Of a stretch of 64,000 bases of DNA, positions 15,123-64,000 are shown piece by piece. Origin of the DNA: Alphaproteobacteria bacterium (GTDB lineage: Bacteria; Pseudomonadota; Alphaproteobacteria; Micavibrionales; UBA2020). The notes under the pieces were generated by a model. That model was not told the DNA's origin. It saw only the letters and a list, made by a program, of their open reading frames with translations, and did no database searches. The stretch's first letter is position 1, and each line of letters begins with the position of its first letter. The position numbers and the translations under genes are program-made. The stretch covers positions 186,001 to 250,000 of the forward strand of contig JAICWS010000002.1 of NCBI GenBank assembly GCA_025934695.1, written 5' to 3'.

Positions 15123-15710
15123 ATGAATGACATCATCATCTGCCGCGCCAGCGAACTGCTTAAAAAAGTGGCTCAGTATGAACCGGCCGCCGTGCTATCG
15201 TTCGAGCATCCGGGCGTGAGCCCCGGCGAGCCCGGCTATGTCGCGCGCCTGGCCGAGAACGGCTTCGACGACGTGCCGCAGCTGATCCTTACCTGCTGGG
15301 ATTCGGAACAGGAAGTCCCTAACGGCCCTGACAAGGGGCAGGTCGAAAAGGGCCTCGATTTCGTGCTGTCGCATATCGAAGACGGGCCGGTCATCATCCA
15401 TTGCAAGGCGGGCAAGTCGCGCTCGGCCGCGCTGGCGCTCGGCGTGCTGTCAAAACTTTATCCCGAAAAGCCCGAGACAGAACTGATCGACATGCTGCTC
15501 ACCATCCGCCCGCAGGCGGCGCCGAACATACTGATGGTGCAAATGGTCGATGACCTCACGGGCCGCGGCGGCAGGCTGACGCAGGCGGTGCTCGATAATC
15601 CCATTCTGTCCGAACAGCGCGCGCAGGCGGAATCGAACCGTCGCGACCTCGCGCGCGAACGCCCCGATCTCTACCGCAAGATGTTCCCGGAAAAATTCTT
15701 CAAGCCTTAA
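15123..15710 (+). CDS. Protein tyrosine/dual-specificity phosphatase-like protein
   Basis: A 195-residue soluble protein with a clear CX5R active-site loop, IIHCKAGKSRSAAL (Cys94, Arg100), preceded by DGPVIIH as in dual-specificity phosphatases. A conserved acid could be Asp60 in LTCWDSEQE, in the position of the general-acid loop. The C-terminal ~40 residues are charged and helical and end FFKP. It lies 4 bases after gpsA, so co-expression is likely; in related genomes this slot is occupied by other small genes. Substrate unknown. Its last 4 bases overlap the convergent gene at 15707. Confidence 0.8.
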   Translation: MNDIIICRASELLKKVAQYEPAAVLSFEHPGVSPGEPGYVARLAENGFDDVPQLILTCWDSEQEVPNGPDKGQVEKGLDFVLSHIEDGPVIIHCKAGKSRSAALALGVLSKLYPEKPETELIDMLLTIRPQAAPNILMVQMVDDLTGRGGRLTQAVLDNPILSEQRAQAESNRRDLARERPDLYRKMFPEKFFKP

Positions 15711-16678
15711 GCGCCGAAGCCTGGCTTCTTCAGCTGGAGCGGCTTGCCGATGGTGATGTCGTCGGTGGCGCCTTTCTTGATCGCTGCACCCTGTTTGTCG
15801 CCGGCGGCTGAACGCAGCATCTTGCCGGTATTGAAGATCTGCGCCGCATAGGAGGTCACTTCCTTGGGCAGCGTGAACCCGGCCTGTTTCAGCCCTTCGT
15901 CGATGGCGGTCAGCGTATCGTTCAGTGTGCGGCCGAAGGCGCGGACCTTTCCCGGATTGGCGGGATGTAGGAAGTCGCCTTTGTCCGCGGCGGTCAGCGT
16001 TTCCTCGGCGAAATCCCAGAAGCGCTTGACGAGCAGGCCGAGACCCGCGCCGCCCATATTATCATTTATATAATTAATGAAGCTTTCGACGCGCTCCGGC
16101 CTGCATTGCTGCAGCATGTCATGAAGCCCTGCGGCCAGCTGCTGAGGGTCGAGCTGCTTGCTGCGCGCGGTCATGGCGGCCGCGATGTCTTCGACGCTTA
16201 AACTCTGGGCCAGGCGGTAGATCTCGCGGGCATCCGTCTCGGGATCCCGGCCGTCTGACATCGCATCCGACGCGGCCTTGATCGAGGGCGGCAGAATGCC
16301 GTCGAGCGCAAGCGTCAGCGTAACGTAATCGTCCTCGCTGAAGGACGTGATATTGCTCTTGAGTTTCTGCGCGCGCACCAGCGGGTCCTTCCCGCCCAGA
16401 TCCATGCTGTCGACGAACGCCTGCACATCGCTTTGTGTAACGGCGGTGATTTTCGCCGACAGCATCGCGGGGTCGACGTCGCTCATCAGCAGGTCATAGA
16501 AGACGGGAATGTTGCGCGCCTTGAGGTCGAGCTCCGCGCGGTTTTCCTTCAGCTTCGGGAGCAGCGCGAGGGCGATGGTTTCCAGCGCATCCTGCTGGTT
16601 GTTCGTGTTGGACAGCGTCTTGCCCATAAAATCGATAATTTCTTTCGGGCCGGCATTGTTATTGAACGAGTTTTTCAT
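15707..16678 (-). CDS. Helical protein of unknown function with C-terminal PLQLKK tail
   Basis: I do not recognise this 323-residue protein. It appears almost entirely alpha-helical, has no signal peptide or membrane segment, and is rich in Leu, Ala, Asp and Lys. Its C-terminus, DDITIGKPLQLKKPGFGA, closely matches the end of the ankyrin protein at 34442 (DITVGRPLQLKKNPGARP) although the rest of the protein shows no ankyrin repeats. That makes the tail a module independent of the fold. The start at 16678 gives MKNSFNNNAG. It is convergent with the phosphatase gene, overlapping it by 4 bases, and divergent from the EVE gene. Confidence 0.85.
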   Translation of the reverse strand: MKNSFNNNAGPKEIIDFMGKTLSNTNNQQDALETIALALLPKLKENRAELDLKARNIPVFYDLLMSDVDPAMLSAKITAVTQSDVQAFVDSMDLGGKDPLVRAQKLKSNITSFSEDDYVTLTLALDGILPPSIKAASDAMSDGRDPETDAREIYRLAQSLSVEDIAAAMTARSKQLDPQQLAAGLHDMLQQCRPERVESFINYINDNMGGAGLGLLVKRFWDFAEETLTAADKGDFLHPANPGKVRAFGRTLNDTLTAIDEGLKQAGFTLPKEVTSYAAQIFNTGKMLRSAAGDKQGAAIKKGATDDITIGKPLQLKKPGFGA

Positions 16679-22339: not shown

Positions 22340-23563
22340 CTACTGCGGCGGCTGTTTCGGGGGCAGGGATGGAATGGGCCCCCAGGGACCTTGTCCCGTG
22401 CCCGGAAGCGGCAGCGGCGTTTGCGGGGACACCGGCGCATGCGGCGGAGGTGCCTCGCCTGTCCATGGCTGCTCCGGAACGCGGCGCAGGCTGACCTGCA
22501 AATCCGGCACCGGCGTATTCGTCATCGCCGAAATCGCCGCGACGCGCGCTTTCAAGGGCGGATGCGTCGCGAACATGCCCAGAAACTCCTGCGAATTTTC
22601 AATGCACATCTGCTGCACCTGGTTGGGCATGCCGGGCACCGCGTCATTACCTGAAATACGCAAGAGTGCGCGCATCATGGCTTCGGGGTTCTTCGTCAAT
22701 TCGACCGAGCCCGCGTCGGCCAGGAATTCCCTTTTCCGCGACAGGGCGAAGCGGATGACGATCGCAAAGAAATAGCCGACCATCAGGATCGCGAGCGCCA
22801 GCAGCATCACGATCAGCGCGCCGCCGCCGCCCTCCCGGTCGCGGCGGGAATAATAATTCGGCCGCACGCCGTAAACGAGCATCTTGTAGAAGAACTGCGC
22901 GAAGAAGCTGAACATGCCGGCGAAAATCACCGCGACCATCAGCAGGCGCGCGTCGCGGTTGATGATATGCGTCAACTCGTGCCCGATGACGGCCTCCAGC
23001 TCGTCGTCATGCAGGCGCTCGATCAGCCCGCGCGTCAGCACGATGCGGTAGCTTTTGTCGTTGATGCCGGTCGCGAAAGCATTCAGCGCCGGGCTGTCGA
23101 TCACCTCGAACTGCGGCATCGTGAGGCCGCGCGAGATGCACAGGTTCTCCAGCATATTGTAAATGCGCGGCATTTGCTGGCGCGTGATCGGCTGCGAATG
23201 CGTCACGAGGCGCATCAGGCTGTTGTGGAAGAAGAAGGCGATCACGAACCAGACGAAGGCGACGCCCACCGCATAGGGCCCGAATTGCGCGACGCCCCAC
23301 AGCCCCGCGCGCACGGCTTCCTTCGTCGAGGGCGAGAAGGAGGCGGGCGCGGGGACGTAGCCAACGTTGCCGTCCTGGTCCATGCCGCCGAACATGCCGT
23401 AGGCCGATTGCATGTTGCGCAGGTCCGAATGCGCGCCCCACCACAGGTCGGCCAGGAAGAAAAAGGCGAAGATCATCAGGATCAGCAGGATGGGAAATCC
23501 CGCCAGCAGGGCGAGGGATTTAAGCTGGTTGTTCCACTGGTATGTCGCAAGACCGGCGGCCAT
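22340..23563 (-). CDS. M48 family membrane metalloprotease (HtpX-like)
   Basis: A 407-residue protein. Two N-terminal membrane segments (about 15-39 and 93-113) are followed by a peptidase domain with HELTH (His195, Glu196, His199), then two hydrophobic segments, and REFLADAGSVEL, which supplies the third zinc ligand Glu and the typical downstream motif. M48B/HtpX-type proteases degrade damaged membrane proteins. The C-terminal ~55 residues are Pro/Gly-rich and end PSLPPKQPPQ, a proline-rich end shared in style with many other proteins of the window. LemA, a frequent partner of HtpX, is encoded just upstream beyond one small gene. Confidence 0.88.
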   Translation of the reverse strand: MAAGLATYQWNNQLKSLALLAGFPILLILMIFAFFFLADLWWGAHSDLRNMQSAYGMFGGMDQDGNVGYVPAPASFSPSTKEAVRAGLWGVAQFGPYAVGVAFVWFVIAFFFHNSLMRLVTHSQPITRQQMPRIYNMLENLCISRGLTMPQFEVIDSPALNAFATGINDKSYRIVLTRGLIERLHDDELEAVIGHELTHIINRDARLLMVAVIFAGMFSFFAQFFYKMLVYGVRPNYYSRRDREGGGGALIVMLLALAILMVGYFFAIVIRFALSRKREFLADAGSVELTKNPEAMMRALLRISGNDAVPGMPNQVQQMCIENSQEFLGMFATHPPLKARVAAISAMTNTPVPDLQVSLRRVPEQPWTGEAPPPHAPVSPQTPLPLPGTGQGPWGPIPSLPPKQPPQ

Positions 23564-23868
23564 GGGGCTCCAAAATTTTCGATGCCGAAAACGACAGTTA
23601 CTTCAATATTATATGGGCTTTTTGAGCCCCGCGGAAAGGCATTTTTCTTGACAGAAAAGCCTATCAGCGTATGCTGAACGCCGATTGAAGCCTTTGCAGG
23701 GCCGGCTGGCTTGCCGCCGGACCCGCTTCAAAACACGAACAATCCCGTTTCAAAAACGCTTTTGCTCGCGACGAAGGGACCGGTAAACCGGCCCTGGCCA
23801 AGGTATTTTCAATCGTCAAAAACAAGAGCCCCAAAACGGAGCCTTACAACAACAGAGGAGTGTTAATT
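23564..23868. other. Intergenic region with promoter and long leader
   Basis: About 305 bases between the divergent M48 gene and the 23869 gene. It holds the TTGACA/TATGCT promoter at 23648-23675, a GGACCGG...CCGGCCC imperfect hairpin near 23780 and the ribosome binding site of the small gene. The leader of nearly 190 bases could be structured; I do not recognise a riboswitch. Confidence 0.45.
23648..23675 (+). promoter_or_regulatory. Putative promoter for the 23869 gene
   Basis: TTGACA at 23648-23653 and TATGCT at 23670-23675 are spaced 16 bases apart. The -35 is perfect; the -10 matches at four of six positions. Confidence 0.55.
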
Positions 23869-24183
23869 ATGAGAGACAAATTACCCGAAGAACATCATGT
23901 CTTCGCCGCCGCCCTGCCCGATATGCGCGCGCATTTCGAAGAAGCGTCCAGGCGCAGCCCGGACCATTCGTTCGTGCTGGACCATATCGCGGATGAGCTG
24001 CGCCAGGCCGAACATCTTGTCGCCAGCAATAACGCGGAACCGCGTCATTTCGAGCGCCTGCGCATGAACCTGATCACCGCGGCCGAGGGCGCGCATTACT
24101 ATCCGCTCGTCGCGCATGAGTTCGATGCGGCGCTCGATATCGCGCTGTCTCACCAGAAGAAGCTGAAAACGCCCGGCTTGTAA
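23869..24183 (+). CDS. Small helical protein of unknown function, 104 residues
   Basis: The protein begins MRDKLPEEHHVFAAALPDMR and appears alpha-helical, with many His and Glu residues (HSFVLDHIADELRQAEHLV). No membrane segment is visible. The ATG at 23869 has a GAGGAG ribosome binding site 8 bases upstream; a GTG at 23860 is less likely. It ends HQKKLKTPGL and abuts the convergent lemA gene with no gap. It separates lemA from the M48 gene, but lies on the opposite strand with its own promoter. Not recognised. Confidence 0.75.
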   Translation: MRDKLPEEHHVFAAALPDMRAHFEEASRRSPDHSFVLDHIADELRQAEHLVASNNAEPRHFERLRMNLITAAEGAHYYPLVAHEFDAALDIALSHQKKLKTPGL

Positions 24184-24777
24184 TCAGGTCCCGAAGCTGA
24201 CCTTGGGCGCTGCCTGCGCGGCCTTTTGCTCGGCGGGGTCGAGCTCGAAGAAGGGCTCTTCCCGGTAGTTGAAGAAGTGCGCAATGATCACGCCGGGCAC
24301 CTGCGTGATCGTCGTGTTGTATTCGCTCGTCGCGTTGTTGAAGAAACGGCGCGCTGCCGCGATCTTGTTCTCGATGTCCGACAGATCGGCCTGCAGCTGG
24401 CGGAAATTCGCATCCGCTTTCAATTGCGGATAGTTTTCCGCGACGGCCAGCAGGTTCGTCATCGCTGCGCCCAGGGCCGCTTCCGACTTGACGCGGTCTG
24501 CGATCGCGCCGCCGCGCATGGCGGTGGCGCGCGCGTTCGTCACTTCCTCGAGGATCGTTTTTTCGTGGGCGGCATAGCCTTTGACGGTCTCGACCATGTT
24601 CGGCACCAGGTCGTAGCGCAATTTAAGCTGCACGTCGACATCGGCAAAAGCGCTCTTGCGGCGCTGGCGCAGCGCGGCCACGCGATTATAGACGCCGACG
24701 GCAACCACGATCGCGAAGATCAGCGACAGGCCCAAGAGCCACAGCACGGTGTCGGTGTAATTCCAGATCGATCCCAT
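24184..24777 (-). CDS. lemA: LemA family membrane-anchored protein
   Basis: A 197-residue protein. One N-terminal membrane helix (~10-29) is followed by YNRVAALRQRRKSAFADVDVQLKLRYDLVPNMV, matching the LemA signature, and then a helical body ending FFNYREEPFFE. LemA proteins are membrane-anchored helical bundles, often encoded with HtpX-type proteases; the exact role is not settled. Here the M48 gene lies on the same strand further downstream, with one small opposite-strand gene between them. Confidence 0.93.
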   Translation of the reverse strand: MGSIWNYTDTVLWLLGLSLIFAIVVAVGVYNRVAALRQRRKSAFADVDVQLKLRYDLVPNMVETVKGYAAHEKTILEEVTNARATAMRGGAIADRVKSEAALGAAMTNLLAVAENYPQLKADANFRQLQADLSDIENKIAAARRFFNNATSEYNTTITQVPGVIIAHFFNYREEPFFELDPAEQKAAQAAPKVSFGT

Positions 24778-24860
24778 CCCTTATCTCCCTAGATTCTATT
24801 TATATTGAGATAGCCCCCAGCCCGAGTTTCCGCCAATCTCCGCCAAAAATAAACCAAAAT

Positions 24861-24889
24861 AAAAACCGGCCGGGAAGTGGCCCGGCCGG
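24861..24889 (-). terminator. Intrinsic terminator, reverse strand
   Basis: A 9-bp stem, CCGGCCGGG at 24866-24874 and CCCGGCCGG at 24881-24889, is flanked on its left by five A, which read as T on the reverse strand, followed by further T-rich sequence. It should end transcription coming from the ankyrin gene at 25094 or from the small frame at 24907. Confidence 0.75.
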
Positions 24890-24906
24890 CCTGTTACGTG
24901 TGCAGA

Positions 24907-25050
24907 TCAAGAACGCAAAACGGGAAGCCTGACATACCCCAACGTAAGAGACATTCCGCCGCAAGCGCTCCGCAGAACCGGCAGGCCCGGGCACAACAAC
25001 CGGAAGAGCCGGTAGACTCCACCCCCAAAAACTCGGGTACGATATTTCAT
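24907..25050 (-). CDS. Possible 47-residue small protein
   Basis: This frame, MKYRTRVFGGGVYRLFRLL to RLPVLRS, is basic and hydrophobic and repeats LPVLRS twice. It ends about 18 bases before a good reverse-strand terminator. There is no ribosome binding site, and the reading may be chance, so it is offered only as a candidate. Confidence 0.2.
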   Translation of the reverse strand: MKYRTRVFGGGVYRLFRLLCPGLPVLRSACGGMSLTLGYVRLPVLRS

Positions 25051-25093
25051 AATACCACGGTGGCGGTAAAAGAATGATGAATAATTGAAAAGC

Positions 25094-25618
25094 CTAAGGT
25101 TTCGGCGGCACGGGCGGCGGGGTTTTCGGCTTCGCGGCTTTGGCTGCGCCGAGTCCGACGGGAATCGAGAGGAACTGTTTGAGCTTCTCGGCGGCGGCTG
25201 CGTTTTCTTCCCACAGCAGCATATAATCCGCCGCAGTCCAGCCATGCTTATCCTTCACATCGTCTTTCGCGCCCGCTTTTTTCAAAAGCTCGATGGTTTT
25301 TTTGCGGCTCTTCATGCCGCCCGACACGGCGGCGGAATGCAGCGCGGTCCAGCCGTGGCCATTGTGATGATGCACGTCGGCGCCTGCCTTGATCAGCGCC
25401 TCGACCATTTCGGCTTCGCCCCAATAGGCGGCGTGCTGCAGCGGCGTCAGTTTATGATTGTTCGCGACATTCGGATCCGCGCCATCGCGCAGAAGTTTCT
25501 TGACCGTGCGGACGTCGCCATTCTTCACTGCGCGGTACAGCTGCGTTTCGCCGTGTTTGTCGCGCTTGTTGATGCCATGTCCGGTCAGCGAGTTGAAAAG
25601 ATGATTAAGCCCCAACAT
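25094..25618 (-). CDS. Ankyrin-repeat protein, 174 residues, proline-rich end
   Basis: About four repeats: KHGETQLYRAVKNGDVRTV from residue 20, HKLTPLQHAAYWGEAEMVEALI, HGWTALHSAAVSGG, and a final KHGWTAADYML. The linker GADPNVAN and GADVHHHN show the usual beta-hairpin turns. No signal peptide is visible. The C-terminus is AAKPKTPPPVPPKP, one of many proline-rich ends in this region. It is the first gene of the dense ankyrin region. Confidence 0.92.
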   Translation of the reverse strand: MLGLNHLFNSLTGHGINKRDKHGETQLYRAVKNGDVRTVKKLLRDGADPNVANNHKLTPLQHAAYWGEAEMVEALIKAGADVHHHNGHGWTALHSAAVSGGMKSRKKTIELLKKAGAKDDVKDKHGWTAADYMLLWEENAAAAEKLKQFLSIPVGLGAAKAAKPKTPPPVPPKP

Positions 25619-25806
25619 GCAAACCCCGATTCCCTGTTCAAGAATAGCGCAAAGTCATCGGTCGCGGCAAACGTCCGCGCAATAAAGAGACTAGTGAGCA
25701 CCTGTTAACATCAGGTTAATTGCTTTAACCAACGCCGGGACGGCGTTTTAGCACAGACTTATGGGATTGCTGCGGCGCGGGAATGCAAGAAAATACGACT
25801 GTTATA

Positions 25807-27339
25807 TCAGTACATGCCGTAGTGCGGGCGATAGGGAACCGACATCAGCACGCGGATCTCGCTGCGCCTTTTCTGTCCGACGGCCCGCACCGAAATATTT
25901 TCGAGCCTGCCCGCCTCGTGATCCCCGGCGAATTTCAGCGCCTCCGTGGTGCCGCGCTGCGTCAGGTACGCCCGGAGATGACGCGGCGCGTCGGATAATT
26001 TATATCCATCCGCAATAAGAAGGCGCGCGAAATCATAGCGCCCGTGCAGCAGTGCCACGGCGAGCGCGCCACCGCCGATTTCTTTCGAAATATCTACGTT
26101 GCCGCGCAGGAAGCGGTCGCGGTGCGCCTCGATATAGCCCGCCATCGTTCCCGCGAGGTTGCTGCCGCCCACGGCGGCTTCGAACGCTTCGGCCAGTTTT
26201 TTGCCGCGCAGCTTGCGGAACTCCTTCGCCTTGTCGCGCAGGGTCAGCGCGAAAGCAGCGCTCCTCTTGCGCCGGTATCTTTCGGCGTCGATGTCTTTCA
26301 CCGCATGGCCGCGCCACAGCATCATTTCCTCGAGCGTCGCGAAGAGATTCAGGCGGAAGGCCGCGTCGAAAATAGTCTGGTCCTGCATCTGCCCGCCGAC
26401 CTCATAGGGCGCGGAAGGGTTCGCGCCCCAGGCCATCAGGTGGTGCGCCGCGCTGCGCCGCCCGCCACCCGCGACAGCCGCCGACAGCGCCTGGTTCAGC
26501 GTGCGTTCGTCGAACAACATCTGGTCGTGCAGGAAACGCATCGCGGCCGTGTTGCCGTTGAAAGCGGCGGTGACGAAAACCGCATCCCAATTGAATTCGC
26601 CGCCCGCGCCGCGGATCGCCGCATAGGCATCCTTCAGCGCCGTTTCGTCCATCGCGGCGCATTTGTCGATCAGCGCCTTGCGCGTATCCGCCGACTGCAA
26701 GCCGATGCCGGCCATGGCGCGGAAGAACGCATCCTTCAGGGGATCGGGTTCAGGCTTTTTCTTTTCTTCCGCGGGCGCGGCGGCGGGAAGGGGCGCGGGA
26801 GGCGCGGCCGGCGCTTGAGGCGCGCACTGGCCCATGCGCCGCGCGAAATCACGGTTTTGGCGGAACGCATCGCGGGTCTTTTCGTCGACCGCGAGATCGA
26901 AGGCGGTTTCGCCGTCGCTGTTGCAAAGATCGAAAGGCGCCTGGTGGGCCAGCAGCAGGCGCACGCAGTCCGCAGCGCCGCAGGCCGCCGCGTAATGCAG
27001 CGCCGTCCAGCCGTCATTGTCCGCGCGCGCGAGGTTGACGAGCGGATGCGCGGCCAGCGCCTCCACCGCGGGGCTGTTCCAGATCATCGCGGCCGCCATC
27101 AGGGGTGTGATGCCGTTCGTTCCCGCGAAATCCGGCAGCACGTCCCGCCGCTGCAGATGGGCCTTCAGCCGCGCGAGGGAGGCACTGTCGTTGCTGCCGG
27201 CCGCTGCCATGAAATCGGCGGCCAGGCTTTCCGGGTCGAGGCCCGCGTGGATCGTATCCATTGTCACGCGTTTTCCGTTCCGGTCCACTCGGGGCGGAAT
27301 TCCATTGGACAGTTGCGATGGTTCTGCGCGTTTGGCCAT
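25807..27339 (-). CDS. Large ankyrin-repeat protein, 510 residues
   Basis: Clear repeats lie between ~60 and 170 (NGITPLMAAAMIWNSPAVEAL, DGWTALHYAAACGAADCVRLLL, DGETAFDLAVDEKTRDAF). A Pro/Ala-rich linker follows (~183-208), then a longer degenerate helical region with ankyrin-like pairs and basic clusters (KAKEFRKLRGKKLAEAFE). The end is EIRVLMSVPYRPHYGMY. There is no secretion signal. The likely start is the ATG at 27339. It is divergent from the 27497 gene, which carries the PxxV-type tail. Confidence 0.85.
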   Translation of the reverse strand: MAKRAEPSQLSNGIPPRVDRNGKRVTMDTIHAGLDPESLAADFMAAAGSNDSASLARLKAHLQRRDVLPDFAGTNGITPLMAAAMIWNSPAVEALAAHPLVNLARADNDGWTALHYAAACGAADCVRLLLAHQAPFDLCNSDGETAFDLAVDEKTRDAFRQNRDFARRMGQCAPQAPAAPPAPLPAAAPAEEKKKPEPDPLKDAFFRAMAGIGLQSADTRKALIDKCAAMDETALKDAYAAIRGAGGEFNWDAVFVTAAFNGNTAAMRFLHDQMLFDERTLNQALSAAVAGGGRRSAAHHLMAWGANPSAPYEVGGQMQDQTIFDAAFRLNLFATLEEMMLWRGHAVKDIDAERYRRKRSAAFALTLRDKAKEFRKLRGKKLAEAFEAAVGGSNLAGTMAGYIEAHRDRFLRGNVDISKEIGGGALAVALLHGRYDFARLLIADGYKLSDAPRHLRAYLTQRGTTEALKFAGDHEAGRLENISVRAVGQKRRSEIRVLMSVPYRPHYGMY

Positions 27340-27417
27340 GATCTTTAAGTATTCTGAAAATGCAATCAGCCACCTTAAAAGCCGATACGGAAAATGTCAA
27401 CGCCACACGGCACCGCA

Positions 27418-27445
27418 TTGACATAAAACGCGAATCTGTTAGCCT
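27418..27445 (+). promoter_or_regulatory. Putative promoter for the 27497 ankyrin gene
   Basis: A perfect TTGACA at 27418-27423 is followed after 16 bases by TAGCCT (27440-27445), which matches the -10 consensus only at three of six positions. Confidence 0.45.
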
Positions 27446-27496
27446 GTGGGCGTATCACATAACGCATTCGTTCATCACGCAAAGGGGACCACGCCC

Positions 27497-28465
27497 GTGC
27501 AACACCGCGCCAAGCCAGCCATGACGCCCGAGCAAAAACAGATCATCAACCGCGCGCTGTCAGCGGCGGTGAAAGCCTGGGACGTCGACCTGATCAAGGG
27601 CGCGGTTGAATCCGGCGCCGATCCGCAGGAGCTGCTGGCCAAGGCGATCGCAAAGAAAAGCCCCGACATGGTCAAACTGTCCATCCAGTACGGCGCGGAC
27701 GTCAACGCGCTGGTGTCGACCGGCGACAGGAAATTCCAGCCGGTCATCCATTACGCGCATGACAATTTCAACGAAGAGATCTTCAATATCATCCTGCAGC
27801 GCGGCGTGCGCATCGACGTGAAGAGCGCGCAAGGCGAAACGCTCGTCCAGCGCGCCGTGCGCAGCGGCGACTTCGACCGCATGCGCTTTTACATCTCCAA
27901 GGGCGGCGACCTCGACGGCTGCGCGCAGGAAGTCCTCGTCAAGGCGATCGACAAGAAAGACCTGGCGGCCATCCAGTGGGCGGTCGACAACGGCGCGGAC
28001 CTCCACGGACGCATCCGCGGCAACGACGACGTCATGAGCACGATGCTGCACCACGCCTACAATAATTTCCGCGAAGATGTCATGGAATATATGCTGAAAT
28101 CCCTCGACATTGACGCGCGCAACTCGGCCGGCGAAACCGTGCTGCAACTGGCCGTGCGCCAGCCGGACTCCAAGAAGGTCGATTACCTGCTGAAAAAAGG
28201 CGCCGATCCGCTGGCCGCGAGCTACGCCAATGTCTCCATCCTCGACGAGGCCATGAAGAGCGTGGCGGAAGAGCGCGAATATTCGTCGTATTCGTCACGT
28301 TCCAAAGAGGGTAAGGCCGTCATGACGTTGTTGCTGGCGAAGATCAAGGACGTTTACGGCGTCGAGCCGTATAATACCGCGATGCAGCGTAATATCACCA
28401 TCTCCAAGCCCATCGCCGTATCGCCGCCGAAAAAGAATGAAGACGGTCCGGGCGCGCCGCGCTGA
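27497..28465 (+). CDS. Ankyrin-repeat protein with ITISKP tail
   Basis: A 322-residue protein with about seven ankyrin-like repeats (AVKAWDVDLIKGAVESGADPQ, KSPDMVKLSIQYGADVNAL, QGETLVQRAVRSGDFDRMR, AGETVLQLAVRQPDSKKVDYLL). Its end joins two local tail types: RNITISKPIAVSPPKK and then a short Pro/Gly end, GPGAPR. I chose the GTG at 27497, which has an AGGGGA ribosome binding site about 9 bases upstream; an ATG at 27521 is the alternative. It is convergent with the Hsp100-like pair, with one base between stops. Confidence 0.87.
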   Translation: MQHRAKPAMTPEQKQIINRALSAAVKAWDVDLIKGAVESGADPQELLAKAIAKKSPDMVKLSIQYGADVNALVSTGDRKFQPVIHYAHDNFNEEIFNIILQRGVRIDVKSAQGETLVQRAVRSGDFDRMRFYISKGGDLDGCAQEVLVKAIDKKDLAAIQWAVDNGADLHGRIRGNDDVMSTMLHHAYNNFREDVMEYMLKSLDIDARNSAGETVLQLAVRQPDSKKVDYLLKKGADPLAASYANVSILDEAMKSVAEEREYSSYSSRSKEGKAVMTLLLAKIKDVYGVEPYNTAMQRNITISKPIAVSPPKKNEDGPGAPR

Positions 28466-28466
28466 T

Positions 28467-28952
28467 TTAGACGCCTTGCCGTGGCGCGAGGCGCAGCTTT
28501 TTCATCGGTTGAACCGGAATTTCGCGACGGAAATCGGCAGCCAGCTGTTCGCCGCGGCGCTGTCCCGTTTTGGCGGCGAAAGCGGGCGAACAGGCGGCGA
28601 GGATATCCTCCGCCTCCGGCGATAGCGGGCCGGTCAGCGTGCTGTCAATGTTCTTGAGGACGCCGCGCATGCCCTGGCTGCCGTCGATTTCGGCGGCGCG
28701 GATGAGGGCTGCCACGGCTTCACCCAGCGCCTTTTCCTGCTCCGCTGTCAGTTCCCGGTCGCCGAGCTTCTTCGCGGAGAATCTGCCGGAGATGCGTGCA
28801 ATATCGTCTTTCGACAGCGGCTTGAACTCGACCGGCTTGAAGCGCTCCAGGAATGCCGGGTCCGCGGCAAACCTTTTAAAATCTTCCGATGCCGCGTCGG
28901 CGCCAATATTGCTCGTCGCGATGAAAATTTTGTCGCGGATGTCCTCGCTCAT
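28467..28952 (-). CDS. Hsp100-like fragment, sensor half of an AAA2-type domain
   Basis: A 161-residue protein that begins MSEDIRDKIFIATSNIGA, equivalent to the sensor-1 strand (MTSNLGA) of ClpA/ClpB second ATPase domains. It continues DPAFLERFKPVEFKPLSKDD, matching the region FRPEMINRIEELGGFVTFVPL in the Hsp100 at the right edge. It then diverges and ends REIPVQPMKKLRLAPRQGV, a loose match to the local tail. There is no Walker A or B. It starts with ATG at 28952, overlapping the stop of the preceding gene (ATGA), with AGGAAGGA 7 bases upstream, so it is translated as its own gene, coupled to its partner. Confidence 0.8.
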   Translation of the reverse strand: MSEDIRDKIFIATSNIGADAASEDFKRFAADPAFLERFKPVEFKPLSKDDIARISGRFSAKKLGDRELTAEQEKALGEAVAALIRAAEIDGSQGMRGVLKNIDSTLTGPLSPEAEDILAACSPAFAAKTGQRRGEQLAADFRREIPVQPMKKLRLAPRQGV

Positions 28953-29476
28953 GACCACATCCTTCCTGCGATGGAAAAGCCCGCGCCCGATGCGCCGCGC
29001 AAACGCAGTGGACGCATGGTTGAAGCGGGGGACGCAATCCCGTCCCGGCATTGGGCCGCCAGTGCATCGCCATTGCGCGCCGATTCAATCGCCTCTTCCC
29101 TTCGGCGTATCACCGCGCGGACGTCGGCCATGGTTCGGTCGAACAGGCTGTCGTCGGAGTCGAACCCTTCGTAGCCGGGCGGATGCCCCAGCAGTTTATC
29201 CAGAGCGCCCGGGTCTTTGAGCGAGGACGCATCGACCCTCTTCACATCCAGGCCCATGGCCTTTGCCATGGCCTCTATGACCATGGTTTTGCCGGCGCCG
29301 GTCATCGGCGGCCCCGGCATCGAGCCCGACTGGTCGATGAGACCCAGCGGAAAGCCCGACGATGGTTGGCGCAGTGGACGCGCTCCTTTTTGGCCGAACA
29401 GCTTGCTCAGGCGGATGGTCTCGTCGATCATCTGATCGGTGATCCGGATGGAATGTTTATTCGCTTTGTCCATCAT
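28949..29476 (-). CDS. Hsp100-like fragment, P-loop half of an AAA2-type domain
   Basis: A 175-residue protein beginning MMDKANKHSIRITDQMIDE. A Walker A motif is visible in PPMTGAGKTMVIEAMAKAMG, followed by LLGHPPGYEGFDSDDSLFD, which matches the LIGAPPGYVGFD pore-loop region of ClpA/ClpB second ATPase domains. The Walker B segment (LLLDEVEKAH in the Hsp100 at the right edge) is absent. The end, STMRPLRLRGASGAGFSI, resembles the PLRLRG tail of the ankyrin protein at 43086. The partner gene continues where the family's sensor region would be. Together they look like a split, degenerate ATPase domain; activity is doubtful without Walker B. Confidence 0.8.
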   Translation of the reverse strand: MMDKANKHSIRITDQMIDETIRLSKLFGQKGARPLRQPSSGFPLGLIDQSGSMPGPPMTGAGKTMVIEAMAKAMGLDVKRVDASSLKDPGALDKLLGHPPGYEGFDSDDSLFDRTMADVRAVIRRREEAIESARNGDALAAQCRDGIASPASTMRPLRLRGASGAGFSIAGRMWS

Positions 29477-29542
29477 TCAATCCATTGAAATGGCGCTAAA
29501 AAATATCCGTTATTATACATAATGCAAAGGGAAAAAGATACG

Positions 29543-29581
29543 AAAAAAAACCGGCCTGGGTCTGTCCCGGGCCGGCTTTTT
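29543..29581 (-). terminator. Bidirectional intrinsic terminator
   Basis: A GC stem, CCGGCCTGGG at 29551-29560 and CCCGGGCCGG at 29566-29575, with one G-T wobble, is flanked by eight A on the left and five T on the right. It lies 16 bases after the FHA gene stop and should end the reverse-strand FHA/protease transcript. Confidence 0.88.
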
Positions 29582-29597
29582 AAGCGATTGATGAAGC

Positions 29598-30575
29598 TTA
29601 TTTTTTCGCGGTTTCAGCGGTCTTGAAGATGTCCGAGCTGAACAGCTTGTCGTTACCCTTCATAAACTCGTCCACGGAATCGGTGGGGGCGAGGTTCGCC
29701 AGATAGGGCTCCAGGTGCGCGGGATAGGTGGGCTCCTGGACGAAGTGACGCTGTGCAACTTGGGTCAGCGCGAAGATGCCGACCATGATGCCGATCGAGA
29801 AGTAAGCCGACACTTGAGCGCGGCGCTTGCGGGGCAGGTCCGTCGACAGCGACAGCGAGCCATAGAGCAGCGCCACCAGCAGCAAGAGGTCGAGGAGATA
29901 GGTCCCCAGCATCGCCATCCAGTTCTCGTTGCTCAGGAAGTCCGCGTAAGCCTCGACATAGGAGAGGATGCCGACCGAGATAATCGTCGTGATGCTGATC
30001 AGCGCCACATGGCTGCGGAAGCGCGACTTGTGGCGGATCAGGCGTCCGGCTACGGCCCAAAGCGCGGCCCAGACGAGGATGAAGGCGAGCGTGCCGCCGC
30101 CCGCGGCCGCCAGCTGCGGGCCGGGCTCGTTGTTCCAGATCTCGAGATACGACCAGCCGGTCACGGTGGCCAGCGCCAGGATGAAGGACACCCAGACATT
30201 TACCGGGCGCGACAGCCAGCCGATGAAGGGATTGGCTTTCTGGATCTTGCGCTCCTTCGGGACCGGGTGCAGCGGATCGAAGGCGCGGATTTCGGTATGG
30301 CCGATGCGCACCGTATCGCCCGACTGCAGGCGCGCGGGCCCGTCGCGAAAGACCTTGTCGTTGACGACCAGGCCGTTTTCGGTGCCGAGGTCGCGGATGC
30401 TCCAGCCCTGCCCGTCGAATTCGATGCGCACGTGCTGCGCGCTGACATGCGGGTCGGAGAGGATGATGTCGTTGTGGTAGCCGCGCCCGAGCGTGGCGGG
30501 GAAGCTTTCAACCATGCGGTGGGTGACCGAACCGTCGCCGGCGTGGCTGGTGATTTCAAGAACCAGTTTTTTCAT
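29598..30575 (-). CDS. FHA-domain membrane protein
   Basis: A 325-residue protein. The N-terminal FHA domain (residues ~10-100) shows GRGYHNDIILSDPHVSAQHVRI and GTENGLVVND, the phosphothreonine-binding motifs (GR, SxxH-like SAQH, NG). About five hydrophobic segments follow (~125-285), then a polar end, KLFSSDIFKTAETAKK. The FHA domain should lie in the cytoplasm if the N-terminus is inside. The gene starts at the last base of the upstream protease stop (TAATG), so the two products are made together. No kinase gene is nearby, and the phosphorylated partner is unknown. Confidence 0.9.
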   Translation of the reverse strand: MKKLVLEITSHAGDGSVTHRMVESFPATLGRGYHNDIILSDPHVSAQHVRIEFDGQGWSIRDLGTENGLVVNDKVFRDGPARLQSGDTVRIGHTEIRAFDPLHPVPKERKIQKANPFIGWLSRPVNVWVSFILALATVTGWSYLEIWNNEPGPQLAAAGGGTLAFILVWAALWAVAGRLIRHKSRFRSHVALISITTIISVGILSYVEAYADFLSNENWMAMLGTYLLDLLLLVALLYGSLSLSTDLPRKRRAQVSAYFSIGIMVGIFALTQVAQRHFVQEPTYPAHLEPYLANLAPTDSVDEFMKGNDKLFSSDIFKTAETAKK

Positions 30576-32071
30576 TAGCGTGTCTCCTTGCCGCCGCGGC
30601 CCGCAGAGGGCGTTTCTTCGCCGTTGTCGTCATTATCGTCCGAAGGCGTCGCGTCCTTCGTCGGCGCGGCGGCCACGGGCGTGGCCGAGCCGGGCACGTT
30701 GGAGGCCGGGGCTTCCGACGCGTCGCGCGGATGGATTTCGGAGAGGAACTTCTGCGCCAGCTTCATCGCGCTTTCCTTCGACACGCCTTCCGCGACCTCC
30801 GTCGCCATCATGCCCTGCCGGCCCTGGCCGACAAGCGCCATATAAAGGTGCATGTCGTAAAGCTTGGGATATTTCTTGTACTGGCGGATGCAGAAGGACG
30901 ATTTCCACTTGCCGCCCGCGATGTTGACGAAGCTGGTGTTGCAGTCGAAGTTCGTGACGTTGCTTTCGCCCGCGTTGGTGTAGGCCTCGAGCGGCATCGA
31001 ATACTGGTCTTCATAATAGGCATAGAAGCGCGCCAGGTTCAGGTCGTCGTCGCCGACGATCGAGTCATAGCGGTACAAGTAGGTGCCCGTGTAAAAGGAT
31101 TCGCCCGATCCCGCGTTCTCGTCGAGGAACTGGCGGTCCTGGCTCGAGCAGGTCAGATGATAGCCGCGGTACTGGTTCTTCTCCTGGATGTCGGAATCGC
31201 CCCAGCACTTGAAGGCGTCGGTGATGCGGCCCGGCACCATATAGGGGCCGAAGGGCTCGCTTTCCCACTTCGCGTTCAGCATGCGGTCGACGTTTTTCTG
31301 CTGGCCGGCCAGCAGCTGCTCTTCGATATATTGATCGGCATGCGCGAGGAAGTCGAACTTCGGACCTTCCTTCTGGTATTTCTCGTAGAGGTCGCGCAAA
31401 GGCTCGACGGGGACGAGGAAGCTGATCTGGTTGCCCGCGGTCGACACGTTGATGCCGGCGACGCGGCCGTCGTGGCCCAGCGCGGGGCCGCCGCTCATGC
31501 CCGGGTTCAGCGAGCCGGAGAAGTGGATCTTCTCGACAAAACTTTCGTCCGACAGGCCGTTATACGTGCCCTCGATGATCGTGAAGCCGATGTCGTGCGG
31601 ATTGCCGAGCGAGAACAGCTTGATGCCCTTGGGCAGGTTCGACTGGCCTAGCTCGACGTGAGTTTTGCCCGGCTTGTCCATCTTCAGGATGGCCAGGTCA
31701 TGCACCGTGTCGGCGATCAGGATTTTCAGGTTGCCGTGTTCGCCCTTGCCGTGCAGGTATTCGAGGCGATTGGCGGTCGGGCGCTGGATGGCCTCGGCCA
31801 CGACGTGGTAGTTGGTCGCAATGAGCCCGTCGGCCGTGAACTGGAAACCCGAACCGATCGAGCTTTTCTTGTCGGACGCGAGGTCGATGGTCTGGACTTG
31901 ATAGATCGCGTCGCCGTAAGACTGGAAGATGCGCTGCGCTTCGTCAGTGATCTGCTGGTTTGGCTGCGCGCCGGCACTATTATGAGCCGCGGCGAGGCCG
32001 AGGCTTGGCTGGCCGAGCAAGGCCAGGGACAAAAACGTCAGGGAAACCCCATAATAGACCGCTGATTTCAT
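30575..32071 (-). CDS. Exported trypsin-like serine protease
   Basis: A 498-residue precursor. A signal peptide (MKSAVYYGVSLTFLSLALLG) ends around residue 28. The trypsin-like domain has His89 (ATNYHVV), Asp125 (VHDLAIL) and Ser193 (PGMSGGP), the complete catalytic triad, as in S1C/DegP-like peptidases; I see no PDZ domain. The following ~200 residues are a unique domain with four Cys (KCWGD, LTCSSQ, FDCNTSF, SFCIRQ) that could form disulfides outside the cytoplasm. The C-terminus is a disordered, acidic and Ser/Pro-rich stretch. It is coupled to the FHA gene. I used the ATG at 32071, with GAGGG upstream, as it gives the signal peptide. Confidence 0.9.
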   Translation of the reverse strand: MKSAVYYGVSLTFLSLALLGQPSLGLAAAHNSAGAQPNQQITDEAQRIFQSYGDAIYQVQTIDLASDKKSSIGSGFQFTADGLIATNYHVVAEAIQRPTANRLEYLHGKGEHGNLKILIADTVHDLAILKMDKPGKTHVELGQSNLPKGIKLFSLGNPHDIGFTIIEGTYNGLSDESFVEKIHFSGSLNPGMSGGPALGHDGRVAGINVSTAGNQISFLVPVEPLRDLYEKYQKEGPKFDFLAHADQYIEEQLLAGQQKNVDRMLNAKWESEPFGPYMVPGRITDAFKCWGDSDIQEKNQYRGYHLTCSSQDRQFLDENAGSGESFYTGTYLYRYDSIVGDDDLNLARFYAYYEDQYSMPLEAYTNAGESNVTNFDCNTSFVNIAGGKWKSSFCIRQYKKYPKLYDMHLYMALVGQGRQGMMATEVAEGVSKESAMKLAQKFLSEIHPRDASEAPASNVPGSATPVAAAPTKDATPSDDNDDNGEETPSAGRGGKETR

Positions 32072-32307
32072 GAAACCCTCAAAAAAAACCGGCGCAAACA
32101 CTGACAAGAATGCTTGGCTGCGCCGGACATTAACTTTCCATTAGGCATTATCTAGATGCAGCGGCACGCTTGACAAGCTGAAATCCGAATCGGGACTGCC
32201 CGCCGCCGGGACGCGGACGGAATCCCGTAATATGACCAACGAGATAATTAAATTTCAAATCCCTCCCTTGATTTGCAGCTTGCTTGCGATGGTGCATGGA
32301 CTCGCGC

Positions 32308-33789
32308 ATGTTAACCATGCTAACTTCTTCAATCGAAAGCAATTCACGACACCAACGTTTTTGGGACGCAATCAGGTCGAAAAAGTTGAAAAATTTTTTT
32401 AACAAGGTGGCAGGAATATTTCGCGGTGATCCGAACAAGATCCAGGACACCGGCTACACGCGTCTTCAAAAAGCCATCGTCCAGAACGACCTCGCTTCGG
32501 TTGTCGCCCTGATCAAGGCCGGCGCCGACGTCAACCTGCGCGGCAATCTCATGTACCCGCCGCTGCACCTCGCGCTCGACAAGGACCGCCACACTATCGC
32601 GGTCGCCCTGATCCAGGGCGGTGCCGACGTCAACCTGCCCGACGCGGCGGGCAAGACGCCGCTACACCGCGCGGTCATGCAAAGCCAGGAAACATTCGTG
32701 CGCACGCTCATCAAGCTGGGCGCCGACCCGAACTTGAAAGACGAAACGGGCAAGACGCCGCTCCACGTGGTAGCGACCGCGCAGCCTGACCTCATCGATA
32801 TTCTCGTCAAGTCGAACGCCAATCCGAACGCGCAGGACAAGGACGGCAATACGCCGCTGCACCTGTTCCTGGCCCGCCCCGTGATGGTCGAGCACCTGCT
32901 CAAGAACGGCGCTGACCCGAACCTGAAGAACGATTTCGGCGTCTCGCCGTACATGATGATGCTCGAGGAAGAGCGCATCCGCGACTATCCGAAAGTCCTG
33001 CAGCAGATGCTGGCCTTCAAAGCCGACGTGGGCTCGACCAACCAGCTGGGCGAAACCATCCTGCACATGGCGGCCAGGCTCGAGCTCGGCGACACGTTCA
33101 ACAACATCCTGCCGAACTGCGAGATCTGTGCGCGCGACGCGAACGGCAACAACGTGCTCCACGCGCTCGCCCGCACCCAGAACGCCGACATGGTCGCGAA
33201 GGTCATCAAGATCGCGCCGCAGCTGCTGAAAGACGTCAACGCGGCGGGCCGCACGCCGCTCGGCGACCTCGTGCGCCGCGCGGACCGTCCGCCGTACCGC
33301 ATCGACGATAAATTCGTCTCCGCCGCCCATATCATGATCGACGCGGGCGCCGACCCTTCCGCGAAGGACGAGCGCGGCCGCACGCTGCTGCATTACGCGA
33401 TCGAGCAGAACCAGCTCGGCCTCGTCGAATACCTGATGAACAAGGGCATCGACCCCGACATCCGCGACAAGGACGGCAAGGCCGCGCTGCACCTGTCGAT
33501 CGAGAAGAAGAATCTCACCGCGCTCGACCGCCTGCTCGACCTCGGCGCCGATCCGGACCTGACCGACGCGCGCGGCTGGACGGTCCTCGACCGGCTGGCC
33601 GAAAAGGAAGACCGCGACTCTTCTTTCGTCCAGCGCCTGATCGTGGCGGGCGGCCAATACAAAAAGCAGCTGCCGCTTAATCCTGAGCTCATGCGCAAGA
33701 ACCGCGCCGGCCTCGACAAGGGCCGCATCGGCAGCACGGGCACCAGCTTCGGCCTCGACAAGGGCGGCCCAAAGCCTCCCGTTCCCTAA
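32308..33789 (+). CDS. Large ankyrin-repeat protein, about 493 residues, KPPVP end
   Basis: About twelve ankyrin repeats occupy most of the protein, many close to consensus (GKTPLHRAVMQSQETFVRTL, GNTPLHLFLARPVMVEHLL, GRTLLHYAIEQNQLGLVEYL, GKAALHLSIEKKNLTALDRLL), with turns such as GADPNLKD. An amphipathic, Phe-rich N-terminus (LKNFFNKVAGIFRGDPNK) precedes them. It ends LDKGGPKPPVP. The start is uncertain: ATG at 32296, 32308 and 32317 and TTG at 32386 are in frame, none with a good ribosome binding site. The stop overlaps the convergent ankyrin gene by 4 bases. Confidence 0.9.
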   Translation: MLTMLTSSIESNSRHQRFWDAIRSKKLKNFFNKVAGIFRGDPNKIQDTGYTRLQKAIVQNDLASVVALIKAGADVNLRGNLMYPPLHLALDKDRHTIAVALIQGGADVNLPDAAGKTPLHRAVMQSQETFVRTLIKLGADPNLKDETGKTPLHVVATAQPDLIDILVKSNANPNAQDKDGNTPLHLFLARPVMVEHLLKNGADPNLKNDFGVSPYMMMLEEERIRDYPKVLQQMLAFKADVGSTNQLGETILHMAARLELGDTFNNILPNCEICARDANGNNVLHALARTQNADMVAKVIKIAPQLLKDVNAAGRTPLGDLVRRADRPPYRIDDKFVSAAHIMIDAGADPSAKDERGRTLLHYAIEQNQLGLVEYLMNKGIDPDIRDKDGKAALHLSIEKKNLTALDRLLDLGADPDLTDARGWTVLDRLAEKEDRDSSFVQRLIVAGGQYKKQLPLNPELMRKNRAGLDKGRIGSTGTSFGLDKGGPKPPVP

Positions 33790-34445
33790 AGTTTCGGAAT
33801 TTTCAGTTTCAGCGAGTGGCCGACAAGCACTTGGCGGGTCAGCCCGTGCCGCGCTTCCCGCGCCGCTTCCCAGGCCAACAGGGCCTGCTGGCTAAAATGC
33901 GCGCCGGTTTCTTTCGCCCAATCGGCGGCGTTGCGCCCCTCATTGTCGCGCAAGGAAGGATCGGCGCCCGCCTTCAGCAGCACCTCCATCATGCCCGCGT
34001 TATCATCCGCGGCGGTGATCATCAGCGCCGTGCGCCCATCCGCCAACCGGTAATCGAGGAGATATTTCTCCTGCGCCAGCAGCTCGGTCATTGCATGCGC
34101 GTGAAATGAGGGACTGGGACATTTGACGGCGAGGTGCAGCGCCGTTTCCGAACTTTTCGCGCGCACCGACGGGGTCGCGCCCGCCGCCATCAACACCCTG
34201 GCGGCTTCGATATGCCCATACTCGGCGGCGACAAGCAGTGGGCTCTTGCCGTCCATGTCGAGTGCGTGGATATCGGCGCGATTTTCTATCAGCAGCGCCG
34301 CGATGTCGGCATAACCCAGTTCGGCTGCGAGGTGCAGCGGTGTGCGTCCGCGGCCTTCGATCCCGGCGTTTCCTGACGAAGACCGGATCCATTTCCTGAC
34401 GGCGTTGAGATCATTCGCCCGGATGGCGTCGAATATCCGCGTCAC
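33786..34445 (-). CDS. Ankyrin-repeat protein, 219 residues, SLKLK end
   Basis: About five repeats from the N-terminus: FDAIRANDLNAVRKWI, GRTPLHLAAELGYADIAALLI, GKSPLLVAAEYGHIEAARVLM, SETALHLAVKCPSP, GRTALMITAADDNAGMMEVLL. The end, TRQVLVGHSLKLKIPKL, follows the xVxxxxLxLK pattern of the local tails, with SLKLK in place of PLQLK. It starts within the stop of the upstream ankyrin gene (ATGA overlap at 34442-34445), so the two are translationally coupled. Confidence 0.92.
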   Translation of the reverse strand: MTRIFDAIRANDLNAVRKWIRSSSGNAGIEGRGRTPLHLAAELGYADIAALLIENRADIHALDMDGKSPLLVAAEYGHIEAARVLMAAGATPSVRAKSSETALHLAVKCPSPSFHAHAMTELLAQEKYLLDYRLADGRTALMITAADDNAGMMEVLLKAGADPSLRDNEGRNAADWAKETGAHFSQQALLAWEAAREARHGLTRQVLVGHSLKLKIPKL

Positions 34446-35230
34446 GGCCGCGCTCCTGGATTTTTTTTCAATTGCAGGGGCCGACCGACGGTGATGTCGC
34501 TGCCCATCCCTTCAGTCAATTCGCGCGCGGCCTTGCGCATCTCGCGTTCCGCGACGATGCTGCGCAGCAGCGCCCCGCCGTCCCGCGCCCAGTCGAAGGG
34601 CGTCTGCGTCCCGTTCGCCGTCGAATTTTCATTCGCGCCCTTGTCGATCAGGAAGCGCATAAAATCCTCTGCCCCGCCGCGCGCCGCGACATGCAGGGCG
34701 GTATAGCCGTTCTTCGCCTGCCCGCGGTCGATATCGGCGCCCGCTGCCAGGCAAGTGCGCGCGAGGTCGAGGTCATTTTGCTCCGCCGCGTGGACGATCA
34801 GCGGCGATCCCTTGAAAGGGCGGTCGGGCCATTTGCCCTGCACCAGCATCCGTCCGATGACGTCATACATCTTGTTCGACAGCGCCCAGTCGAGCGGATA
34901 ATCGGCGCCTTTGCCGGACGGGAAGGGGCTTGCGCCGCAATCGAGCAGCGCATGCGCGATATCGGCGCGGTTTTGCCGCACGGCCAGCGTAAACGGCGAA
35001 AAGTCGCAATCGTTCTGCGGGTCGATATTGCGGCTGCGCCCGGCGATCAGCCGCACGACCGCGACATCGCCCTTTTCCACGGCAAGGAACAGCGGCGCGC
35101 GTCCCTCCGGCGTCCAGGCATCGACATCGGCGCCGTCATGGATGGCGGTGGTGAGCGCGGCTGCATCGGCGGCGCATATCGCCTCCGCCACGCGGCGGCT
35201 CAAACTGTCCTGGTCGGAAGCGGCAGGCAT
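34442..35230 (-). CDS. Ankyrin-repeat protein with DITVGRPLQLKK tail
   Basis: A 262-residue protein with about six repeats (GRAPLFLAVEKGDVAVVRLI, DFSPFTLAVRQNRADIAHALL, GSPLIVHAAEQNDLDLARTCL, GYTALHVAARGGAEDFMRFLI). A charged helix and then the tail SDITVGRPLQLKKNPGARP close the protein; the tail nearly repeats that of the non-ankyrin protein at 15707. I used the ATG at 35230 with AGGAG 12 bases upstream; the ATG at 35242 sits directly on that AGGAG. It is coupled to the downstream ankyrin gene by a 4-base overlap. Confidence 0.92.
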   Translation of the reverse strand: MPAASDQDSLSRRVAEAICAADAAALTTAIHDGADVDAWTPEGRAPLFLAVEKGDVAVVRLIAGRSRNIDPQNDCDFSPFTLAVRQNRADIAHALLDCGASPFPSGKGADYPLDWALSNKMYDVIGRMLVQGKWPDRPFKGSPLIVHAAEQNDLDLARTCLAAGADIDRGQAKNGYTALHVAARGGAEDFMRFLIDKGANENSTANGTQTPFDWARDGGALLRSIVAEREMRKAARELTEGMGSDITVGRPLQLKKNPGARP

Positions 35231-35360
35231 CGTCTCTCGCATCTCCTTTAAAAATCAATCGCGACAGGCTAACATTATCTTTATATTATGACAATCATAA
35301 AATCGCGAAGCATTTGAAAAAGCGCGGAGATGACAACGTCAGGACACTTGTCATAAACTA

Positions 35361-61440: not shown

Positions 61441-64000
<2,560 letters not shown>

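What the first reader, a model, noticed from the sequence alone, without database searches (positions are those of the whole stretch)
28467..29476. A split Hsp100 ATPase domain in which both halves carry the local tail
Two genes overlap by ATGA. The first has Walker A (TGAGKT) and the PPGYEGFD pore region of a ClpA/ClpB second ATPase domain; the second starts at the sensor strand (IATSNIGA) and follows with FLERFKPVEFKPL. The Walker B segment that should lie between them is missing from both. Each ends in a PLRLRG- or KKLRLAP-like tail, and the second has its own strong ribosome binding site, so this is not a simple sequencing frameshift. The pair may be an inactive adaptor or decoy derived from the window's full Hsp100, or a non-ATPase scaffold.
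Basis: partly seen in the sequence, partly recalled or inferred. Interest (0 to 1): 0.75.

Follow-up and report, generated by a model that had tools for sequence, protein, structure and literature searches.

The report
Tail-tagged, broken-up Clp ATPase domain
Two overlapping genes encode the two halves of a protein-unfolding motor domain with a key catalytic part missing; relatives keep similar motor fragments bearing the same kind of end tag as dozens of other proteins, so they look like working non-motor parts rather than debris.

Summary
Minus-strand ORF1 (29476-28949) has Walker A TGAGKT and pore PPGYEGFD; ORF2 (28952-28467) has sensor 1, Arg finger and sensor 2. They overlap by ATGA, ORF2 has AGGAAGG, and no frame between pore and sensor 1 encodes Walker B. 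Profiles place them on the two halves of a Clp D2 domain; the nearest own paralogue is ClpA, not the window's Hsp100. Behind the same FHA gene, G004 has two tailed halves, G003 one, G002 a single chain, G001 none. The G003/G004 N-half is under purifying selection (dN/dS 0.16). A second locus in G000 and G001 has tailed AAA fragments with Walker B but no Walker A. The tail is genome-wide: 43 matches in G000, 34 in G001, 0 of 37 genomes outside the family; three congeners use another consensus. Best reading: non-catalytic Clp-domain modules in a tail-tagged protein set. What the tail binds, and any action on Clp, is inference. The tails of ORF1 and ORF2 themselves are atypical, ORF2's weak; structure models failed.

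The parts
28949..29476 (-). ORF1, N-half: Walker A and pore loop of a Clp D2-like domain, no Walker B, tail MRPLRLRG...
29285..29302 (-). Walker A TGAGKT of ORF1 (preceded by LIDQSGSMPGPPM)
   Evidence: alignments
29159..29182 (-). pore-loop motif PPGYEGFD
   Evidence: alignments
28952..29017 (-). C-terminal tail of ORF1 (core PASTMRPLRLRG)
   Evidence: 1 of 5000 shuffles as good; only 6.4 bits, E 3.4, with the later tail model
28467..28952 (-). ORF2, C-half: sensor 1, Arg finger, D2-small-like part, sensor 2, tail
28961..28967 (-). Shine-Dalgarno-like AGGAAGG of ORF2, 8 nt before its ATG
28949..28952 (-). ATGA start-stop overlap (translational coupling, inferred); G004 has TTGA in the same place
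28899..28916 (-). sensor 1 TSNIGA
   Evidence: alignment
28842..28844 (-). Arg finger R37 of FLERFKP, kept in G004, G002 and the window Hsp100
28665..28667 (-). sensor 2 Arg R96 (QGMRGV), kept in G004, G002 and the window Hsp100
28470..28508 (-). C-terminal tail of ORF2 (PMKKLRLAPRQGV), weak on its own
   Evidence: 250 of 5000 shuffles as good; not listed
29598..30575 (-). FHA-TM gene, the syntenic anchor of the slot (found in 16 of 18 family genomes)

Best explanation
The pair is a functional, non-catalytic remnant of a ClpA/ClpB-type D2 domain carried on two translationally coupled chains, and it belongs to a lineage-specific set of proteins that share a short C-terminal recognition tail. 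Shown: domain origin of both halves, missing Walker B, a related pair in the same slot in G004, and tails as a genome-wide C-terminal feature with clade-specific consensus. Inferred: the tail docks these proteins on one common receptor. Once there, the N-half (pore face) and C-half (Arg finger and lid) act as pseudo-subunits or caps that contact real Clp/Hsp100 rings and slow or redirect them, without hydrolysing ATP themselves.
For: Both halves map to consecutive parts of one D2 domain. G004 has N- and C-half counterparts in the same place with TTGA coupling and clear tails. The N-half between G003 and G004 has dN/dS 0.16 over 213 codons, below four neighbours at 0.20-0.29. A second operon (G000 C7, L032) has a tailed 204-aa protein with pore and Walker B but no Walker A, plus a tailed 99-aa Walker-B piece, with ATGA overlaps; a 206-aa G001 protein is its likely orthologue, 30% over its length, with tail. 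None of the nine tailed AAA-like proteins that I compared has both Walker motifs (read). Tail matches in fetched G000 regions: 27 of 27 lie within 25 aa of a C-terminus, 15 of them outside the training set; 0 in reversed and in three shuffled sets of the same 1022 ORFs. Arg finger and sensor 2, the parts that act between subunits (general knowledge), are what the C-halves keep.
Against: G001, the closest genome by the FHA protein, has no counterpart in this slot, and the C-half profile finds only its Hsp100-length frame, weakly. G003 has the N-half without a C-half, so the pair is not an obligate unit across the genus. The AAA origin of G003N/G004N is weak by sequence (10.9 and 6.9 bits; no support; no Pfam or NCBIfam match for G004N) and rests on PPGFVG, gene place and tail. 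The C-half PDB match is 2.1e-6 for the whole chain but its best single stretch is only E 0.019. No selection test was possible on ORF1/ORF2 themselves. ORF2's tail is weak and neither tail is recovered by the 23-row model. AlphaFold models show no AAA fold, at low confidence. No promoter-like site was found before ORF1. Nothing shows that any of these proteins touches a Clp ring or that a tail receptor exists.
Confidence: 0.65

Rival explanations
1. Decay: an old clp-like gene broke up and the pair is a pseudogene on its way out.
For: Walker B gone, no counterpart in G001's slot and no C-half in G003, GC3 of ORF1/ORF2 0.74/0.75 against 0.81-0.87 in four other window genes (FHA, Hsp100, the 18526 acyl-CoA-synthetase-like gene, the 27446 ankyrin gene).
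Against: Both frames open, own SD, ATGA coupling; dN/dS 0.16 for the N-half in G003/G004; the same kind of fragment recurs at a second locus with tails; the tailed C7 204-aa gene also has GC3 0.74.
Confidence: 0.17
2. Two-chain enzyme: ORF1 and ORF2 (perhaps with the tailed Walker-B pieces coded on contig C7) assemble into a working AAA+ domain.
For: ORF1 keeps Walker A, ORF2 keeps sensors and Arg finger, C7 proteins carry Walker B.
Against: The beta-strand with Walker B would have to come in trans from another locus; no C-half partner in G003; ORF1's Walker A is set in an altered loop (GPPMTGAGKT after an insert). The single-chain models are too poor to count either way.
Confidence: 0.07
3. 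Exported effectors: the tail is a C-terminal secretion signal and the Clp fragments poison Clp rings of a prey or host cell.
For: The tailed set is rich in ankyrin (Pfam), LRR-like, MORN-like and hairpin-membrane proteins (by eye), typical of effector sets (general knowledge); one relative is titled Micavibrio sp., a genus known for predators (general knowledge).
Against: No VirB4 in 6 of 6 genus genomes (two of the six are under 90% complete) and no VipB in 17 of 17 family genomes, so no sign of an ordinary type IV or VI system; types I, II, III and others were not tested; the lifestyle of these genomes is unknown.
Confidence: 0.2
4. Assembly or sequencing error split one gene.
For: None found.
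Against: No frame contains Walker B and a comparable split exists in an independent assembly, G004.
Confidence: 0.02

Closest known systems
ClpA (second ATPase domain)
   Same: ORF1 residues 56-124 align to ClpA chain 6uqe_A at E=3.6e-8, and ORF1 to the own-genome ClpA at 38.8% over 80 columns (ClpA is my label for that gene).
   Different: No D1, no Walker B, domain cut after the pore region, added tail.
ClpB/ClpC/ClpA C-terminal part of D2 (Arg finger to sensor 2)
   Same: The C-half profile A4 hits ClpB chain 4ciu_A at whole-chain E=2.1e-6, best stretch E 0.019; Arg finger and sensor 2 kept.
   Different: Stand-alone 161-aa chain with a tail; no Pfam ClpB_D2-small call.
Walker-B 'trap' mutants of plastid ClpC1
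   Same: Non-hydrolysing Clp subunits; passages of PMC7966870 say the trap is dominant-negative and suggest that it forms inactive mixed oligomers. A precedent for dead Clp subunits acting on live rings.
   Different: Engineered point mutants of a full-length protein, not natural half domains.
C-terminal sorting signals in general (LPXTG, PEP-CTERM and the like; recalled, not tested)
   Same: Short C-terminal motif shared by many unrelated proteins of one genome.
   Different: By eye, the tails end without a terminal membrane segment and most tailed proteins that I read show no N-terminal signal peptide (no predictor was run); two clade-specific consensus forms.

Membership tests
AAA+ Clp/Hsp100 D2 ATPase | Walker A GxxxxGK[T/S] | tested here: met
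   TGAGKT in ORF1 within an altered loop
AAA+ Clp/Hsp100 D2 ATPase | Walker B hhhhDE | tested here: not met
   absent in all three frames between pore and sensor 1
AAA+ Clp/Hsp100 D2 ATPase | aromatic pore loop GY.G | tested here: met
   PPGYEGFD in ORF1
AAA+ Clp/Hsp100 D2 ATPase | sensor 1, Arg finger, sensor 2 | tested here: met
   ORF2: TSNIGA; R37 and R96 invariant over four rows
AAA+ Clp/Hsp100 D2 ATPase | one continuous domain on one chain, after a D1 domain | tested here: not met
   two ORFs, no D1
AAA+ Clp/Hsp100 D2 ATPase | Pfam AAA_2 above the curated cut-off | tested here: not met
   ORF1 21.9 bits against 27; the C7 204-aa relative passes at 66.5
AAA+ Clp/Hsp100 D2 ATPase | AAA fold in a model | tested here: inconclusive
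   pLDDT 55.1 and 43.4; Foldseek best E 2.4 for the ORF2 model
AAA+ Clp/Hsp100 D2 ATPase | ATP hydrolysis | not testable with these tools
   needs purified protein
Tail-tagged protein set of this genus | C-terminal tail of the local consensus | tested here: inconclusive
   ORF1 1 of 5000, ORF2 250 of 5000 shuffles; with the 23-row model ORF1 only E 3.4, ORF2 not listed at E 5, neither at E<=0.01 in the genome; G004 counterparts clear
Type IV effector set | VirB4 in the genome | tested here: not met
   0 of 6 genus genomes, 2 of 17 family genomes
Type VI effector set or ClpV | VipB sheath in the genome | tested here: not met
   0 of 17 family genomes; control E. coli rings

The most novel reading that the evidence does not exclude
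The genus uses a private C-terminal address code. Dozens of unrelated proteins (ankyrin, LRR-like, MORN-like, hairpin-membrane, Clp fragments) carry one short tail read by one unknown receptor. The code changed as a whole in one clade (PLxLK in G000/G001, ARFTRK in G003/G004/G005), and pieces of the Clp motor have been recruited repeatedly as non-catalytic modules of that system.
Probability: 0.4. Interest if true: 0.85.

Novelty: new variant of a known kind. Interest (0 to 1): 0.64.

Why it matters
Natural, selected fragments of a Clp motor that have lost catalysis would be a new way to regulate or jam protein unfolding. The tail they share with dozens of proteins points to an undescribed sorting or docking system in Micavibrio-related alphaproteobacteria. 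Because the code differs between sister clades, it can be tested by swapping tails.

Tried and rejected
Frameshift or hidden Walker B: rejected, three-frame translation. Longer ORF2 from 29051: no extra AAA match. Derivation from the window's Hsp100: not favoured. Structure of the halves: both models too poor to use; Foldseek on the ORF2 model found nothing; no search was run on the ORF1 model. Defence system: PADLOC gave for the AAA fragments one weak match for ORF2 (DolB, E 0.005) and PDC-M37B for the C7 204-aa protein (5.7e-10, probably its AAA part), nothing for ORF1. Type IV and type VI export: markers absent in the genus. Hsp100 N-domain as a tail-specific receptor: found across the family also where my tail model found nothing (e.g. 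G009, G011, G015, G016), so not specific. Literature: searches listed no paper on this tail or on such split AAA pairs; I saw only listings and abstract starts, and passages of PMC7966870. Most subscription papers and bioRxiv preprints are not in that library.

Not independent: the tail model A2 used contains ORF1 and ORF2, so their hits there prove nothing. A5 contains 23 of the 43 G000 matches that it then finds; its 34 G001 matches are outside the training set. A6 contains four G004 tails and one G003 tail. The regions used, apart from the window and L032, were chosen because they had tail hits; the test there is position within the protein.

Full report
What is there. The window lies in contig C2 of a 4.1 Mb, seven-contig genome (G000). 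Right behind an FHA-TM gene (29598-30575 minus) stand two minus-strand genes. ORF1, 29476-28949, carries TGAGKT and PPGYEGFD. ORF2, 28952-28467, carries TSNIGA, FLERFKPVEFKPL and QGMRGV. They share ATGA, and AGGAAGG ends 8 nt before the ORF2 start. A GC-rich inverted repeat lies between the FHA gene and ORF1; the scan lists it as terminator-like on the plus strand, and the minus-strand sequence also runs into Ts. So the pair may have its own transcript (inference), although the scan found no promoter-like site before ORF1.

Domain origin. A profile from 20 Clp D2 domains of own and related genomes scores ORF1 43.6 bits and ORF2 18.0. hhalign gives 97.9% for ORF1 over template columns 1-161 and 97.0% for ORF2 plus its G004 counterpart over columns 82-291. 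Against PDB, ORF1 hits ClpA (3.6e-8). The C-half profile hits ClpB (whole-chain 2.1e-6, best stretch 0.019). In the own genome ORF1 is nearest to ClpA (52.8 bits), then ClpB 39.7, the 802-aa L004 protein 37.0 and the window Hsp100 33.9. ORF2 also prefers ClpA, 34.7 against 20.4 for the Hsp100 (gene labels mine).

Other genomes. The FHA gene marks the locus in 16 of 18 family genomes. In the genus: G004 has an N-half (215 aa, PPGFVG, tail APTTARFTRKGNAP) and a C-half (222-aa ORF, most likely starting at an internal TTG in a TTGA overlap; sensor 1-like LLTTMNSIP, LLRRFKD, GARGM, tail LPATARFTRRRAP). G003 has only the N-half, 79% identical. G002 has one 263-aa chain that shares DQSGSMP with ORF1 (17 columns, E about 0.01) and has RFKFNFANIAPLD and DAGLRPVI in its C-part. 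G001, the nearest genome by the FHA protein (77%), has only a small tailed ankyrin protein there. G005 gave no FHA match, so its slot could not be seen. Of the 12 family members in other genera I fetched the stretch for 11; by eye no such pair stood behind the FHA gene in those that I could read, but some were cut short and G009's was not read further. The ORF2 protein search matched 2 of 94 genomes, G000 itself and G004. The ORF1 search matched 94 of 94, in the listing mostly through full-length Clp genes (list cut). The C-half profile matched 5 of 17 family genomes: G000, G002 and G004 at E below 1e-66, and G001 and G015 more weakly in frames of 900 and 770 aa. The N-half of G003 and G004 has dN/dS 0.16, beside 0.27, 0.20, 0.20 and 0.29 for four neighbours. 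That is purifying selection on a protein without Walker A. Caveat: its AAA nature is weak by sequence.

A second locus. On contig C7 an operon with ATGA overlaps encodes a MORN-like (by eye) tailed protein, a 204-aa protein and a 99-aa protein. The 204-aa one joins a piece that resembles the N-terminal cap of the genome's LRR-like proteins (by eye) to a D2 fragment with pore and Walker B but no Walker A (94.4 bits; AAA_2 66.5 bits). The 99-aa one has only MVLLDEADRASPDVLREL (AAA_2 26.3 bits, just under the cut-off). Both end in tails. G001 has a 206-aa protein, 30% identical over its length, again with Walker B, no Walker A and a tail. A PF07724 search of the 6 genus genomes shows the G000 and G001 fragments beside the full-length Clp genes. 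Each of the nine tailed AAA-like proteins that I compared (ORF1, ORF2, two of C7, one of G001, G002, G003, two of G004) lacks at least one Walker motif.

The tail. A profile from 14 tails found 95 matches at E<=10 in the own genome, 51 of them at E<=0.1 by my count of the listing (the 14 are among them). A 23-row profile found 43 matches at E<=0.01 in G000 (23 of them its own rows), 34 in G001, 4 in G006, 4 in G008, 1 in G002, none in the other 13 family genomes and none in 37 genomes of the order outside the family. In fetched G000 stretches 27 of 27 domain hits lie within 25 aa of a C-terminus; reversed and three shuffled sets gave 0. The carriers include ankyrin, LRR-like, MORN-like, hairpin-membrane, unknown and AAA-fragment proteins (all but ankyrin and AAA named by eye). 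G003, G004 and G005 have another consensus, (A)PxTARFTRK: 23, 27 and 15 matches at E<=1 (five of these are the model's own rows), while G000, G001 and G002 have 5, 1 and 3, best 0.095. Presumed orthologues of the small ankyrin protein beside the FHA gene carry the local form in G001, G004 and G005 and a further form in G002. The simplest reading is that one receptor reads the tail and that tail and receptor changed together; this is inference. ORF1's own tail is atypical (E 3.4 with the 23-row model; not listed), though only 1 of 5000 shuffles did as well with the first matrix; ORF2's is weak.

How it may work. N-type fragments keep the pore face and C-type fragments keep the Arg finger and sensor 2, which in Clp rings act between subunits (general knowledge). 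A dead subunit can act on live Clp rings: passages of PMC7966870 describe ClpC1 Walker-B traps as dominant-negative and suggest inactive mixed oligomers. I therefore think these are tail-docked pseudo-subunits or caps acting on Clp/Hsp100 rings. The functional non-catalytic part is fairly likely (0.65); the Clp-modulating step is a guess at about 0.3. Export as effectors is the main rival; VirB4 and VipB are absent in the genus, and other secretion types were not tested. Structure models were too poor to decide anything.

Noticed in passing
G000 whole genome; window examples 15707-16678, 34442-35242, 33786-34445, 46948-48251, 52901-53572: Genome-wide C-terminal tail (core VxxPLxLK) on dozens of unrelated proteins; a different consensus (ARFTRK) in three congeners.
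   Followed up: partly
window 61441-63975: Hsp100 with an unusual N-terminal region that matches 15 of 55 genomes searched, all in the family, and also lies in open frames of about 290-325 aa in G003, G004 and G005, too short for the two AAA domains.
   Followed up: partly
L032:9692-11009 (G000 C7): Operon of three tailed genes with ATGA overlaps, including an LRR-cap-like/AAA chimera with Walker B but no Walker A.
   Followed up: yes
window 33786-35242 and 46948-48251: Further pairs of tailed ankyrin-type genes overlapping by four bases.
   Followed up: no
window 22340-32107 and L031, L050, L051, L057: Block with a trypsin-like protease and FHA-TM gene (Pfam), ankyrin proteins, a LemA-like gene and an M48-like protease (last two labels recalled), also seen near the FHA gene in relatives.
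   Followed up: no
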